Shown one piece after another: positions 4,778-63,746 of a stretch of 64,000 bases of DNA (the first letter of the stretch is position 1; the number at the start of each line of letters is the position of its first letter). Below the pieces are notes generated by a model. The model ran no database searches, had not been told where the DNA came from, and worked only from the letters and a program-made list of their open reading frames with translations. The stretch is from contig NZ_RJUO01000002.1 of assembly GCF_003752365.1 (NCBI RefSeq), positions 744,001 through 808,000 of the forward strand, given 5' to 3'. The stretch is from Frondihabitans sp. PhB188 (lineage in GTDB: Bacteria; Actinomycetota; Actinomycetes; Actinomycetales; Microbacteriaceae). The translations under genes were made by a program, and so were the position numbers.

Positions 4778-4855
4778 AATTTCAAGGAGATTTTGCTGTC
4801 GCGACGCCCGGCATGCTGATCTGCCGGGGTTGCCGGCGAATTTCTCCTTGAAATT
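4778..4855. repeat. palindromic intergenic element, copy 1
   Basis: A 78-bp element bounded by perfect 13-bp inverted arms, AATTTCAAGGAGA at 4778-4790 and its complement at 4843-4855, with core CATGCTGATC at 4812-4821. It lies between the convergent ends of purB and the small membrane protein gene. An exact 12-mer repeat sits just upstream (4757-4768). Four relatives occur elsewhere in the window. Confidence 0.85.
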
Positions 4856-24411: not shown

Positions 24412-25620
24412 CTAGCCGGCGATGCGCACGAAGTGGTGCGGGGCGTCCCAGATGGGGCGGACGCTGACGTAGCCGCCCGGCTTCGGAGCGTCGAGGATCA
24501 TGCCGTTGCCGGCGTAGATGCCGTCGTGGTCGTCGCTGTCGAAGACCACGAGGTCTCCCGGAACGGCCTCGCTCTGCGAGATAGTGGTGCCGGCGGCGTC
24601 CTGCGAGGGGACGTAGTGCGGCAGCGAGATGCCGAACTGCGCGTAGACGTACATGATCAGGCCCGAGCAGTCGAACGAGCCGGGGGTGTCGCCGCCGTGC
24701 ACGTACGGCGTGCCGAGGTACTGCAGCGCGACCTGGTAGACCTCGGCGCGGTCGAGCTTGGCGTACTTCGGCTTGGCGAGGTAGTCGGCGGCGGTGGGGC
24801 CGGTCCACTCGTAGATGCCGAGCTTCTGGCGGGCCGCGATGGCCGAGACCTCGTAGTCGACGACCGAGGTGGCGCCGTACGAGTCGCGGCCGGAGACGGT
24901 GTTCAGGACGCCGGTGGCGACGTCGTACGTCTGGCTGCCGGCGGCGACGACAGTGGTCGTGCCGGTCGGGGAGGCGTAGGCGGCGGTCTGTGCGGACTTC
25001 AGGACGGGCAGCACGGAGGTCGCCAGGATGCCGCAGACGACACCGACGATCGCGCCGCGACGGGCGGCCAGGGCGATGCGGGCCCCGCGGCGGCCGGCTG
25101 GGGCGGCGATCGCCGGACGCTGAGCCGGACGGGAGACGACGACGCGGGAGCGCCCGGTCGGCTCGACGGCGGAGGGCACGAAAGTCTGGCGGCGGCCCGC
25201 GACGACGCTGCTGGGGATGCTGGCGGCGAGCCCCGAGAGGGGAAGCGGGGCGGTGGTGGCCGCAGGTGCGACCGGGGCGACCGCGGCCGGCGCAACGACC
25301 GGCGAGACCGGGGCGGGAGCCACGGCGGCTGCAGGTGCCACGATCGGCGACACGGGCGCAGCAGCCACGACCGGCGAGACCGGGGCGGGATCCGAGGCAG
25401 AGCCCGACATGAGCTCAGCGGCGGCCGCAGCCTCGCGAGCGGCACGGGCGGCGCGACGCGGGCTGATGACCGGATCGATGCTGAATGGGGCCCCGGCAAG
25501 GGCGGAGGCAGACGACGCGACGGCCGCACGACGGCCCGAGCGCTTCGGTTCGGCGGCGATCCGGACTTCGACCGAGGGTCCGGTGGTGCGGGGCTCGGGA
25601 GTCGGGTCGATCGTGTGCAT
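24412..25620 (-). CDS. NlpC/P60 peptidoglycan endopeptidase, membrane-anchored
   Basis: 402 residues. The C-terminal ~110 residues are an NlpC/P60 domain: FDCSGLIMYVYAQFG carries the catalytic Cys, DHDGIYAGNGMILDAPKPGG the His region. A single membrane segment (ARRGAIVGVVCGILATSVLPV) sits near residue 190. Before it is a ~180-residue cytosolic part of low complexity, rich in Pro, Ala and Val (repeats of APVSPVVA). The topology is therefore type II with the hydrolase outside. Role: cleavage of stem peptides during growth or division. Confidence 0.9.
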   Translation of the reverse strand: MHTIDPTPEPRTTGPSVEVRIAAEPKRSGRRAAVASSASALAGAPFSIDPVISPRRAARAAREAAAAAELMSGSASDPAPVSPVVAAAPVSPIVAPAAAVAPAPVSPVVAPAAVAPVAPAATTAPLPLSGLAASIPSSVVAGRRQTFVPSAVEPTGRSRVVVSRPAQRPAIAAPAGRRGARIALAARRGAIVGVVCGILATSVLPVLKSAQTAAYASPTGTTTVVAAGSQTYDVATGVLNTVSGRDSYGATSVVDYEVSAIAARQKLGIYEWTGPTAADYLAKPKYAKLDRAEVYQVALQYLGTPYVHGGDTPGSFDCSGLIMYVYAQFGISLPHYVPSQDAAGTTISQSEAVPGDLVVFDSDDHDGIYAGNGMILDAPKPGGYVSVRPIWDAPHHFVRIAG

Positions 25621-31389: not shown

Positions 31390-31468
31390 AAATTCAAGGA
31401 GATTTCCGGCTCGGGCGCGCGCCGATCGGCATGGCCCGGCTCGCCGCCAGCACAATCTCCTTGAATTT
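31390..31468. repeat. palindromic intergenic element, copy 2
   Basis: 79 bp with perfect 15-bp inverted arms, AAATTCAAGGAGATT at 31390-31404 and its complement at 31454-31468. The core CATGCCGATCGG reads on the minus strand. It lies between convergent guanine deaminase and HIU hydrolase genes. Confidence 0.88.
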
Positions 31469-38543: not shown

Positions 38544-38621
38544 AATTTCAAGGAGATCCGGCGGGCGGACGACGGCGCCATGCGGATCGGGGGTCGTTGG
38601 GGCGAAAATCTCCTTGAAATT
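38544..38621. repeat. palindromic intergenic element, copy 3
   Basis: 78 bp with perfect 14-bp inverted arms, AATTTCAAGGAGAT at 38544-38557 and its complement at 38608-38621, core CATGCGGATCGG. This is the only copy between divergent starts (xdhC and the amidohydrolase). Confidence 0.85.
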
Positions 38622-38774: not shown

Positions 38775-40154
38775 ATGGCCCAGACGCAGACCCCGACTCC
38801 CGCCCCGACCCTGCGAATCAGCGGGGCCGTGCGCACCGTCGTCGACGAGGACACCGAGCGCGACGGCGACCTGCTCGTGCGGGACGGCTTCGTCGTGGGC
38901 GCAGACGGCGACGGCACGGACGGCGAAGACAGGGACGGCGACGGCACAGACTGGGACGGCACAGTCGAGACCCTCGACGCGACCGACGCCGTGGTCACGC
39001 CGGGCCTGATCAACGCGCACCACCACCTGCTCCAGAGCGCCTTCAGGACGCTGCCGGGCACGCGCGGGGTCCCGATGGCGACATGGCTTCCGACGATGGC
39101 CGCCGCCTACGCCGACGCGGGCATAGACGCCTCGCTGCTTGCCGCGTCGGCCGCCGCCGGGGTGGCCGAGGGGCTCCTGAACGGCGTGACCACCGTCGCC
39201 GACCACCACCTGAACTGGCCGCTCGAGGCCTCCGTCGACGACCTGACGGCCGTGGCCCGGGCGACCGCCGACGCCGCGGCGCGACTCGGCGGGCGCCTCG
39301 TCTTCGTGCGGGGCTCGGCGCGCGACGCCGCCACGGACGCCGCGGAGTCGGCCGAGGCGATCGTGCGCGCGCTCGTTCCCGGCGCGGTCGGCGGCGTGCG
39401 GGCCGACGGAATGCTCCAGGTCGCGGTCGGACCGGCCGGCGTGCACAGCGACTCCCGCGAGACCTTCGAGGCGCTCGGCGAGATCGCTGCTCGGCACGGC
39501 CTGCGCCGGCGCACCCAGGCCAACGAGCAGGTCGACACGGCGATCGCGCTCGAGCGCTACGGGAGGCGGCCGATCGATCTGCTCGACGAGTGGGGCTGGC
39601 TCGGGCCCGACGTCACCGTGGCGCACCTCTGCGACGTGACGCCCGACGAGATCGCTCGACTCGCCGCAGCCGGCGTGACCGCGACTCACGCGCCGGGCTG
39701 CGATCTGCCGATGGGCTGGGGCATCTCACCCGTGGCGGCCCTGCGCGAGGCGGGCGCGCCGGTCGGGCTCGGCACCTCGGGCGGCGGCTCGAACGACGCC
39801 GGGCACCTGCTCGCCGACGCGCGCCTCGCGATGCAGGTGGCACCGCTCGTCGGCCCGCCGCTCTCGGCGCGCGCCGTGCTCGGCATGGCCACCGCCGGCG
39901 GAGCACGCGGTCTCGGGCGGCCCGAGCTCGGCCACCTGCGGCCGGGAGCCGCCGCCGACCTGTGCGTGTGGGACATCGGCGGGGTGGCCGATGCCGGAGT
40001 CGCCGACCCCGTCGCGGGGCTGCTGTGGGCGTCGCCGGGGAGGCGTCCGCGGCACGTCGTGGTCGCCGGCCGGGTGGTCGTGCGCGACTACGCCCTGGTG
40101 AACGCCGACGAGCGGGAGCTGGTGGCGGCGGTGCGGGCGCGCGTCGGGCGCTGA
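38775..40154 (+). CDS. 8-oxoguanine-deaminase-like amidohydrolase with altered metal site
   Basis: 459 residues of the ATZ/TRZ amidohydrolase family, closest in layout to 8-oxoguanine and related purine deaminases. The first metal motif is present (INAHHHLLQ near residue 80) and AHLCDVTPDEI keeps a His. However the usual THLAE becomes TQANE, and the usual LGVDGSASND becomes LGTSGGGSND, so the strand-5 His and the catalytic Asp are replaced by Gln and Ser. The rest of the fold is well conserved. Near residues 43-63 there is an Asp/Gly-rich insertion (GADGDGTDGEDRDGDG). It may have a changed chemistry or be regulatory or inactive. Confidence 0.75.
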   Translation: MAQTQTPTPAPTLRISGAVRTVVDEDTERDGDLLVRDGFVVGADGDGTDGEDRDGDGTDWDGTVETLDATDAVVTPGLINAHHHLLQSAFRTLPGTRGVPMATWLPTMAAAYADAGIDASLLAASAAAGVAEGLLNGVTTVADHHLNWPLEASVDDLTAVARATADAAARLGGRLVFVRGSARDAATDAAESAEAIVRALVPGAVGGVRADGMLQVAVGPAGVHSDSRETFEALGEIAARHGLRRRTQANEQVDTAIALERYGRRPIDLLDEWGWLGPDVTVAHLCDVTPDEIARLAAAGVTATHAPGCDLPMGWGISPVAALREAGAPVGLGTSGGGSNDAGHLLADARLAMQVAPLVGPPLSARAVLGMATAGGARGLGRPELGHLRPGAAADLCVWDIGGVADAGVADPVAGLLWASPGRRPRHVVVAGRVVVRDYALVNADERELVAAVRARVGR

Positions 40155-50865: not shown

Positions 50866-50933
50866 CAGGCCAGTCTACGGAACAACTGTTTCATGCGGGT
50901 AAACGTTTCGGCGAGCGAGCAGGCGGGCGGGGT

Positions 50934-50992
50934 GCGAGATGGCCCTCGCCGGCGCATCGCGGCGGGCAACGCGACGCCGAGGGCCATCTCGC
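50934..50992. repeat. large hairpin with 15-bp arms GCGAGATGGCCCTCG
   Basis: Perfect inverted arms at 50934-50948 and 50978-50992 with a 29-base GC-rich middle that can itself pair partly (GGCGCATCGC / GCGACGCC). Flanking GGCGGGC/GCCCGCC extends the stem. It lies between the amidase stop and the aminotransferase start, both on the minus strand. It may terminate the upstream transcript or be another mobile palindrome. Confidence 0.8.
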
Positions 50993-51049
50993 CCGCCGGC
51001 ACGCACGGAAACGCGGCGGGGCGGCGCCGTGGAGAGAGTACCCGGGGCG

Positions 51050-62432: not shown

Positions 62433-62511
62433 AAATTCAAGGAGATTCTCGGTCGCGGCGATGGGCGCATGCCGATCGGGGCGGCGCCGGAGCGAGAATC
62501 TCCTTGAATTT
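62433..62511. repeat. palindromic intergenic element, copy 4 (best conserved)
   Basis: 79 bp with perfect 18-bp inverted arms, AAATTCAAGGAGATTCTC at 62433-62450 and its complement at 62494-62511, core GCATGCCGATCGG at 62468-62480. It lies between convergent amidotransferase and metallo-hydrolase genes, six bases after an exact 12-mer copy. Confidence 0.92.
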
Positions 62512-63667: not shown

Positions 63668-63746
63668 AAAATCAAGGAGATCGGCCGCCGAAGATGCCCG
63701 GGATCCGCCCCACGTTCGGTGCGGCAGACCAGATCTCCTTGAAATT
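63668..63746. repeat. palindromic intergenic element, copy 5
   Basis: About 79 bp with 10-bp perfect inner arms TCAAGGAGAT at 63672-63681 and its complement at 63733-63742; the left arm has lost two T relative to other copies and the core is more diverged (GATGCCCGGGATCC). The stop codon of the next gene lies at its right edge. Confidence 0.8.

What the first reader, a model, noticed from the sequence alone, without database searches (positions are those of the whole stretch)
62433..62511. Family of five ~79-bp palindromic intergenic elements
Copies at 4778-4855, 31390-31468, 38544-38621, 62433-62511 and 63668-63746 share length (78-79 bp), inverted arms built on TCAAGGAGAT (10-18 bp perfect) and, in four copies, a central CATGCNGATC. 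The centre of the 31390 copy is inverted relative to the arms-only frame, so orientation is defined. Base composition of the arms (AT-rich) differs from the host. The constant length and conserved centre argue against ordinary terminators; a non-autonomous mobile palindrome (REP or MITE type) or a protein-bound structural element is more likely. AAGGAGAT also resembles a ribosome-binding site, which may matter in RNA form.
Basis: seen in the sequence. Interest (0 to 1): 0.88.

Follow-up and report, generated by a model that had tools for sequence, protein, structure and literature searches.

The report
Palindromic repeats partnered with nuclease genes
Five repeated DNA palindromes in this actinobacterial window belong to a scattered family whose end sequences match those bracketing a resident gene for a DNA-binding nuclease, which suggests a previously undescribed kind of tiny mobile element and its helper enzyme.

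Summary
The host genome holds 24 copies, not five; sister species G004 and G285 carry 50 and 94 exact copies of the same architecture. Each copy is two inverted arms at near-constant spacing plus an asymmetric centre, CCGATCSGCATGA. Left and right halves do not covary within species, so a double-stranded, protein-bound site fits better than a hairpin.

The new finding is a partner. Genes encoding an AbiEi-like winged helix plus DUF559 (Vsr-like) nuclease carry such palindromes on both sides: 22 of 49 genes tested (20 of 47 without the two that gave the clue) versus 0 of 800 control intervals. In seven genomes dispersed copies carry a resident gene's arm type; in several others none was found. 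Between lysE and rpoB the unit is present in three sister species with three arm types and absent in four. Two near-identical copy pairs with unrelated flanks mark the ~90-bp palindrome as the copied unit.

I infer REP/RAYT-like non-autonomous elements with an unrelated enzyme; no RAYT was found. Binding, cleavage and transposition are untested.

The parts
4778..4855 (-). palindromic element 1 (strand = direction in which the centre reads GATCNGCATG); convergent gene junction (adenylosuccinate lyase + / unnamed -)
31390..31468 (+). palindromic element 2; convergent junction (deaminase + / transthyretin-like HIUase -)
38544..38621 (-). palindromic element 3; between divergent genes (XdhC family - / amidohydrolase +); best-scoring copy of the model in the genus search
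62433..62511 (-). palindromic element 4 (the reported one); convergent junction (peptidase C26 + / metallo-hydrolase -); no element recognisable at the orthologous junction of two sister species
63668..63746 (+). palindromic element 5; convergent junction (MarR + / unnamed -); sister species G285 has an element with its own arm type at the same junction

Best explanation
The palindromes are short (~80-90 bp) non-autonomous mobile elements. Each consists of two inverted recognition arms held about six helical turns apart, with an asymmetric central motif (CCGATCSGCATGA). Their trans-acting partner is a protein with an N-terminal AbiEi-like winged helix and a C-terminal DUF559 / Vsr-like PD-(D/E)XK nuclease, whose gene is in many cases itself bracketed by two copies of the same element. 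Proposed working: the winged helix binds the cognate arms; two protomers facing each other bring their nuclease domains to the middle; cleavage starts copying or re-insertion of the palindrome, mostly outside genes where it does little harm. Shown here: the bracketing, the shared arm type between gene and dispersed copies in seven genomes, near-rigid spacing, lack of covariation, an empty site for the gene-bearing unit, and two near-identical copy pairs with unrelated flanks. Inferred: binding of arms by the winged helix, cleavage at the centre, and that this protein (rather than another) moves the element.
For: (1) 22 of 49 AbiEi-DUF559 genes tested have the same facing inverted 12-mer pair (40-110 bp apart, up to 1 mismatch) within 500 bp on both sides; 0 of 800 control intervals do. 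Two of the 22 (L225, L218) gave the clue, so the independent count is 20 of 47; one more (L254) rests on a self-complementary 12-mer. An earlier narrower run gave 15 of 33 vs 0 of 600, a k=11 variant 21 of 49 vs 0 of 800. (2) Dispersed copies have the arm type found beside a resident gene in the host, G285, G201, G246, N. aerilata, N. lichenicola (roughly; only 2 copies) and, for one of its two types, G132. (3) The gene sits between lysE and rpoB in host, G285 and G201, each with a different arm type; the same flanks are only 5, 14, 32 and 116 bp apart in G246, G087, G004 and G150. (4) The best-matching pair spacings on the two sides agree within 1 bp in 20 of the 22 genes; in the other two they differ by 11 bp, one helical turn; extra tandem sites are mostly 19-21 bp apart. 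(5) No left/right covariation. (6) Two near-identical copy pairs with unrelated flanks. (7) Exact copies of the AAGG arm class vary from 0 to 94 within the genus, control 0 in all 18 genomes; G201 and G246 have other arm types. (8) Invariant E194, Q211, D221, E231, H238, D247, R250 over 29 proteins; PDB profile hits 3hrl E=5e-14 and the mobile intron protein 3r3p E=9e-5. (9) AbiEi antitoxins are known to bind paired inverted repeats (PMC7319586, passages read).
Against: 27 of 49 genes fail the bracketing test. In G004 (50 exact copies), G273, G185 and G236, and for the AAGG-type copies of G132, no AbiEi-DUF559 gene with matching arms was found among those examined; not every gene was examined. 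In G201 the sites lie on one side of the gene only, and in G246 the facing partner arms have degenerated. DUF559 itself is in 18 of 18 genomes, with or without dispersed copies. Interiors within a genome are only about 44-58% identical (medians) while arms are nearly invariant, which plain transposition followed by neutral decay does not predict. No target-site duplication was visible. Gain or loss between strains could not be tested. Pfam assigns AbiEi_4 only below its cut-off. The single-sequence structure model failed (pLDDT 36.5). The arm-protein correlation does not single out the winged helix.
Confidence: 0.62

Rival explanations
1. Host-adopted binding sites: the AbiEi-DUF559 protein (or a derived regulator) binds dispersed sites at gene ends as a road-block terminator, insulator or chromosome-organising factor. 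The sites are kept by selection for host function and are not mobile now.
For: Arms nearly invariant while interiors are 44-58% identical within a genome (selecting copies by arm exaggerates this); near-rigid phasing; enrichment at convergent junctions in host (14 of 24 vs 13 of 66 window baseline, p=3e-5) and G285 (18 of 29); one junction occupied in both host and G285.
Against: Exact copies of one arm class from 0 to 94 within one genus; no element at the orthologous 62433 junction in two sister species; two near-identical pairs with unrelated flanks; G004 shows no convergent enrichment (6 of 28, p=0.48); the partner unit is itself present or absent at one site.
Confidence: 0.2
2. Defence or toxin-antitoxin-like module: the protein is a nuclease with an AbiEi-type regulator, and the palindromes are its operators and self-recognition or immunity marks.
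For: AbiEi-like domain in Pfam and PADLOC, and a PADLOC 'homing endonuclease' model hit for the host protein; AbiEi autoregulates through inverted repeats (PMC7319586, passages); Rpn nucleases once annotated as transposases were reported as phage-defence toxin-antitoxin proteins (PMC10327210, start of abstract seen).
Against: Operators alone do not explain 18-94 dispersed exact copies; no second gene is apparent inside the host unit.
Confidence: 0.1
3. Ordinary bidirectional intrinsic terminators or an RNA hairpin family.
For: Position at gene ends; the arms can pair; RNAalifold pairs the arms, 11 of 15 pairs with two-sided changes; at offset +1 a slight excess of interior pairing (z=2.7); Naasia outer positions 1-8 p=0.03.
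Against: No within-species covariation at the symmetric register (0.467 paired vs 0.487 shuffled), interiors fold no better than chimeras (-19.7 vs -19.4, sd 0.4), none in the outer arm over all 61 copies (positions 1-8 p=0.18), though nearly invariant arm cores leave that test little power; constant length with unpaired interior; some copies in divergent or codirectional gaps; the same sequences bracket one gene family.
Confidence: 0.05
4. Classical REP/REPIN elements moved by a RAYT (Y1 tyrosine transposase).
For: Inverted doublets at fixed spacing, extragenic, bracketing a candidate mobiliser gene, as reported for REPINs (PMC3116915, passages).
Against: PF01797 absent in 18 of 18 genomes while 5 of 14 control genomes ring; no covariation expected of a hairpin.
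Confidence: 0.03

Closest known systems
REPIN / REP sequences with RAYT (TnpA-REP)
   Same: Many short extragenic inverted doublets of fixed spacing; dispersed copies of the same type as those bracketing a mobiliser-type gene; species-specific families; often downstream of or between convergent genes (PMC3116915 passages; PMC3733652 abstract).
   Different: Partner is a winged-helix plus Vsr-like nuclease, not a Y1/HUH transposase (0 of 18); halves show no within-species covariation; a third, asymmetric central motif is conserved.
AbiEi antitoxin operators (type IV toxin-antitoxin)
   Same: N-terminal AbiEi-like winged helix; paired inverted repeats next to the gene; multiple sites (PMC7319586 passages).
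   Different: C-terminal part is a DUF559 nuclease; repeats lie on both sides of the gene and at tens of other loci; about 50 bp lie between the two arms in the host element, against gaps of 3 and 13 bp reported there.
EDxHD / Vsr-like homing endonucleases (I-Bth0305I type)
   Same: Profile match of the nuclease part to PDB 3r3p, 'mobile intron protein'; host protein matches a PADLOC 'homing endonuclease' model.
   Different: Not inside an intron or gene; bracketed by its own palindromes; associated with dispersed non-coding copies. That 3r3p is I-Bth0305I is recalled, not from a call.
MITEs of insertion sequences
   Same: Short non-autonomous elements with inverted ends matching those of a larger gene-bearing unit.
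   Different: No DDE or HUH transposase apparent in the host unit, no target-site duplication seen, a ~90-bp palindrome at each end instead of a single terminal repeat.

Membership tests
REP/REPIN-RAYT | Y1 (HUH) tyrosine transposase partner | tested here: not met
   PF01797: 0 of 18 genomes; control rings in 5 of 14
REP/REPIN-RAYT | units that form hairpins | tested here: not met
   no within-species covariation at the symmetric register or in the outer arm over 61 copies; a slight excess at offset +1; invariant arm cores are uninformative
REP/REPIN-RAYT | GTAG or CGTC tag | not tested
   not searched for
REP/REPIN-RAYT | extragenic inverted doublets at conserved distance, many copies | tested here: met
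MITE of a known IS | ends match those of a transposase-bearing element | tested here: inconclusive
   ends match a nuclease-bearing unit; genome-wide IS search not done
MITE of a known IS | target-site duplication | tested here: inconclusive
   none visible in the near-identical pairs, but these are few
DUF559 (PF04480) family | profile match above cut-off | tested here: met
   host gene 27.3 bits, N. aerilata gene 40.9 bits, cut-off 20.6
AbiEi_4 (PF13338) | profile match above cut-off | tested here: not met
   20.5 and 22.6 bits against cut-off 25: resemblance only
PD-(D/E)XK / Vsr-like nuclease | conserved catalytic acidic residues and fold | tested here: inconclusive
   invariant E194, D221, E231, H238, D247 over 29 proteins, PDB profile hit 3hrl; fold not modelled successfully
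Type IV toxin-antitoxin | adjacent AbiEii (nucleotidyltransferase) toxin gene | tested here: inconclusive
   no second gene apparent inside the host unit; neighbours beyond it and other units not examined for this
Known RNA family | Rfam match at gathering score | tested here: not met
   0 matches in the window

The most novel reading that the evidence does not exclude
A new superfamily of bacterial mobile DNA: a winged-helix plus Vsr-like nuclease that moves ~90-bp bipartite palindromes without any HUH, DDE, serine or tyrosine recombinase. Its recognition arms change together with the enzyme, so each species accumulates its own set of copies, and it may sometimes carry other genes between two elements (G285, L368).
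Probability: 0.4. Interest if true: 0.93.

Novelty: new variant of a known kind. Interest (0 to 1): 0.82.

Why it matters
DUF559 was found in all 18 genomes searched here and is almost uncharacterised: 14 papers in the searched library mention the name, and titles and abstract openings show none about repeats. Finding that many of these genes sit between cognate palindromes, and that such palindromes are scattered through genomes, gives them a testable DNA target, explains a class of intergenic repeats, and offers a second, enzyme-unrelated instance of the REP/RAYT logic. Because gene groups have their own arm types, it is also a natural set for learning how winged-helix specificity changes.

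Tried and rejected
RNA/terminator reading: folding of all 24 host copies on both strands, RNAalifold, covariation and chimera tests, Rfam: rejected. RAYT: PF01797: rejected. Early rough gene calls were unreliable; contexts come from a codon-trained caller. Viral contigs: 6 hits of the host arm pattern, not examined further; no relative of the N. aerilata protein. Plasmids: 3 weak Tsukamurella hits. Mantel test: arm distance correlates with protein distance (rho 0.32-0.46) but not more with the winged helix than with the rest. AlphaFold without an alignment failed and no fold search was made. Species tree of the rpoB fragment is well supported only for G201+G285, so gain versus loss of the lysE-rpoB unit stays open. 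Second host arm type (CGGCAACTCAGG) in the window: 13 hits with up to 2 mismatches (one exact), within chance.

Rows dropped before the 49-gene count: eight loci duplicating others, L222 fragments, a second fragment of L248, two weak hits (L231, L234), and L297 (same gene as L230). Loci with a DUF559 hit in which the two seed proteins found no full-length relative (L214, L215, L223, L237, L244, L249, L252, L253) and the weaker matches were not tested. In one search only pairs of equal length were compared. The 56304 false pair was dropped from the 24 host copies.

Full report
CHECK OF THE OBSERVATION. The arm TCAAGGAGAT with one mismatch allowed occurs 13 times in the window, 1.37 expected, 0 of 100 shuffles as many. 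In the whole host genome (3.79 Mb, 10 contigs) both exact 10-bp arms face each other 11 times, reversed-pattern control 0, and 24 copies are found with looser arms. Of these, 18 span 70, five 71 and one 69 bp from TCA to TGA.

ANATOMY. Copies share two inverted arms, a near-constant spacing and an asymmetric centre, consensus CCGATCSGCATGA. Sister species have the same architecture with other arms: G285 has ATCGAAGGGGAT, G004 TTGAAGGAGAA, G201 CATATGGACGGAGAT and a second type, G246 AATTGCGAGGAGAT. Named relatives are Naasia aerilata, N. sp. SYSU D00057, N. lichenicola, Cryobacterium sp. BB307 and Pseudolysinimonas yzui. The central GATC lies 26-28 bases from the AAGG (AGG) of the left arm in 17 of 24 host, 21 of 29 G285, 24 of 28 G004 and 16 of 23 Naasia copies; most of the rest have no GATC there.

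NOT A HAIRPIN. If the element worked as RNA or single-stranded DNA, left and right halves of one copy should fit each other better than halves of different copies of the same species. They do not. Interior pairing at the symmetric register is 0.467 against 0.487 shuffled over 54 copies; of seven offsets, +1 shows a slight excess (0.497 vs 0.462, z 2.7). Interiors fold to -19.7 kcal/mol on average against -19.4 (sd 0.4) for chimeras. Outer arms over all 61 copies show none (positions 1-8, p 0.18); Naasia alone has p 0.03 there. Arm cores are nearly invariant and so uninformative. RNAalifold does pair the arms with two-sided changes, but its alignment mixes species with different arms, where both arms differ together, as expected of two copies of one binding site. 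Rfam: 0 matches in the window.

WHERE COPIES LIE. With a codon-trained gene caller, host copies lie between convergent genes in 14 of 24 cases (window baseline 13 of 66 junctions, p 3e-5). G285 has 18 of 29 convergent. G004 has only 6 of 28 and is mostly between codirectional genes. Divergent gaps hold 7 of the 80 copies with both neighbours called. The window elements are at convergent junctions in four cases and a divergent one in the fifth.

THE PARTNER GENE. Two genes bracketed by a pair of elements, one in N. aerilata and one in the host (G000:C4), turned out to be of the same kind: AbiEi-like winged helix plus DUF559. I then searched PF04480 in 18 genomes (found in 18 of 18) and scanned flanks for inverted pairs. 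Final test: 22 of 49 genes have the same facing inverted 12-mer pair on both sides within 500 bp; 0 of 800 random 900-bp intervals from the window and 23 Microbacteriaceae loci that themselves hold dispersed copies. Without the two genes that gave the clue it is 20 of 47. Best-matching spacings on the two sides agree within 1 bp in 20 of the 22 and differ by 11 bp in the other two; genes with several sites have more chances to agree. Some genes have additional tandem sites mostly 19-21 bp apart. Gene groups have their own arms, for instance CACGGATCAGGAG, CTCAGCAGG, TGTGCAGGA, CGGCAACTCAGG. Two of three loci from other families of the same order also show equal-spaced inverted pairs on both sides. 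Close relatives were rare in the wider phylum sample (E<=1e-30 in 3 of 149 genomes, the host included).

GENE AND DISPERSED COPIES MATCH. In the host, G285, G201, G246, N. aerilata and N. lichenicola (two dispersed copies, outer arm type similar) the dispersed copies have the arms found beside a resident gene. In G132 the resident type TGACCAAATGCAGGAGA forms full elements that alternate with AAGG-type elements at both dispersed loci I read, L073 and L080. In G201 the sites are on one side of the gene only, and an arm of its second type lies beside a frameshifted DUF559 gene; in G246 the facing partner arms have degenerated. In G004, G273, G185 and G236, and for the AAGG type of G132, no matching bracketed gene was seen among those examined, so these may be orphans or served by an unbracketed or unexamined gene. 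Exact counts of the AAGG class: host 18, G285 94, G004 50, N. aerilata 13, G273 8, G185 5, G132 5, G236 5, G308 2, G036 1, G262 1, none in the other seven; control 0 in all 18. G201 and G246, at 0 here, have other arm types. The identity of G-numbered genomes with named species rests on equal contig lengths.

POSITION OF THE UNIT. The host unit (element, gene, element) lies between lysE and rpoB, 1254 bp between the lysE stop and a conserved CTTATAC. The same junction holds a related gene in G285 and G201. In G246, G087, G004 and G150 these two landmarks are 5, 14, 32 and 116 bp apart (alignment ends with positions). The three orthologous units carry three different arm types, each matching its own genome's dispersed copies. 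At the reported 62433 junction no element is recognisable in G004 (short gap) or G285 (unrelated sequence); at 63668 G285 has one with its own arms.

MOBILITY. In G004 two copies 649 bp apart are 94% identical inside with flanks 25% identical; in G285 two inverted copies are 90% identical inside with flanks 45% identical. Identity stops near the arm ends, so the ~90-bp palindrome is the copied unit. No target-site duplication was visible. Most copies are old: median interior identity over pairs of equal length is 0.44 (host), 0.51 (G285) and 0.58 (G004), against flanks 0.36, 0.39 and 0.30. Arms stay nearly invariant; selecting copies by their arms exaggerates this, but interiors so diverged next to intact arms still suggest continuing selection on the arms. 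This is the main point that a plain transposon reading does not explain.

MECHANISM. AbiEi antitoxins bind paired inverted repeats (PMC7319586, passages read). The C-terminal part matches PDB 3hrl (E 5e-14) and the mobile intron protein 3r3p (E 9e-5) by profile and keeps E, D, E, H, D invariant. I therefore propose facing protomers on the two arms, nuclease domains at the conserved centre, and cleavage-initiated copying. Binding, cleavage and movement are inference. Arm distance correlates with protein distance (Mantel rho 0.32-0.46, 17 genes) but does not single out the winged helix.

COMPARISON AND NOVELTY. It works like REPIN/RAYT (PMC3116915 passages; PMC3733652 abstract), but the RAYT partner is absent and the hairpin feature is not met. 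Searches for DUF559 with palindromic, with inverted repeat/transposon/AbiEi/Vsr, with transposase, and alone, for REPIN/RAYT in actinobacteria, for Microbacteriaceae repeats, for Vsr-like homing endonucleases and for Rpn nucleases listed no paper that describes this in the titles and abstract openings shown; only open-licence PMC papers are covered and some lists were capped. I rate it a new variant of a known kind (dispersed palindromes with a trans-acting partner), with a real chance that it is a separate class.

Noticed in passing
L368 (G285:C1:40500-44500), elements 1194-1258 and 2258-2322: Two near-identical inverted elements bracket a 277-aa membrane-protein gene (weak, below-cut-off CPBP protease matches) instead of a DUF559 gene, as if a cargo unit.
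   Followed up: partly
L073 1276-1692 and L080 1390-1692 (G132): Tandem arrays in which complete elements of two arm types (TCAAGG and TGCAGG) alternate at about 100-115 bp intervals.
   Followed up: partly
L166 and L167 (G285:C1 about 4,198,857 and 26,084): The same element with the same surroundings occurs near both ends of one 4.23-Mb contig: assembly overlap or terminal repeats.
   Followed up: no
L206 1290-1440 and 2429-2559; L230; L228: Some DUF559 genes are bracketed by iteron-like arrays of several sites, often at 19-20 bp spacing, rather than simple pairs.
   Followed up: partly
L171 1435-1519 and 3509-3593 (G285) versus window 62433 and 63668: Both species have two elements around the same peptidase C26 / metallo-hydrolase / MarR region but only one at the same junction: possible insertion hotspot.
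   Followed up: partly
window 50928-50998: 33-nt inverted repeat (82% complementary, 5-nt loop) between two minus-strand genes, unrelated to the family; probably a terminator.
   Followed up: no
window 38868-38951: 15-bp period repeat (GACGGCGAC...) inside the amidohydrolase gene next to element 3.
   Followed up: no
window 25242-25398: Imperfect 27/72-bp repeats inside the minus-strand gene 24412-25620.
   Followed up: no
L291 (G000:C2:705500-709500): A second host AbiEi-DUF559 gene has its own palindromes (CGTCGGCAACTCAGG), spaced 77 and 88 bp on the two sides; its dispersed copies were not searched genome-wide.
   Followed up: partly
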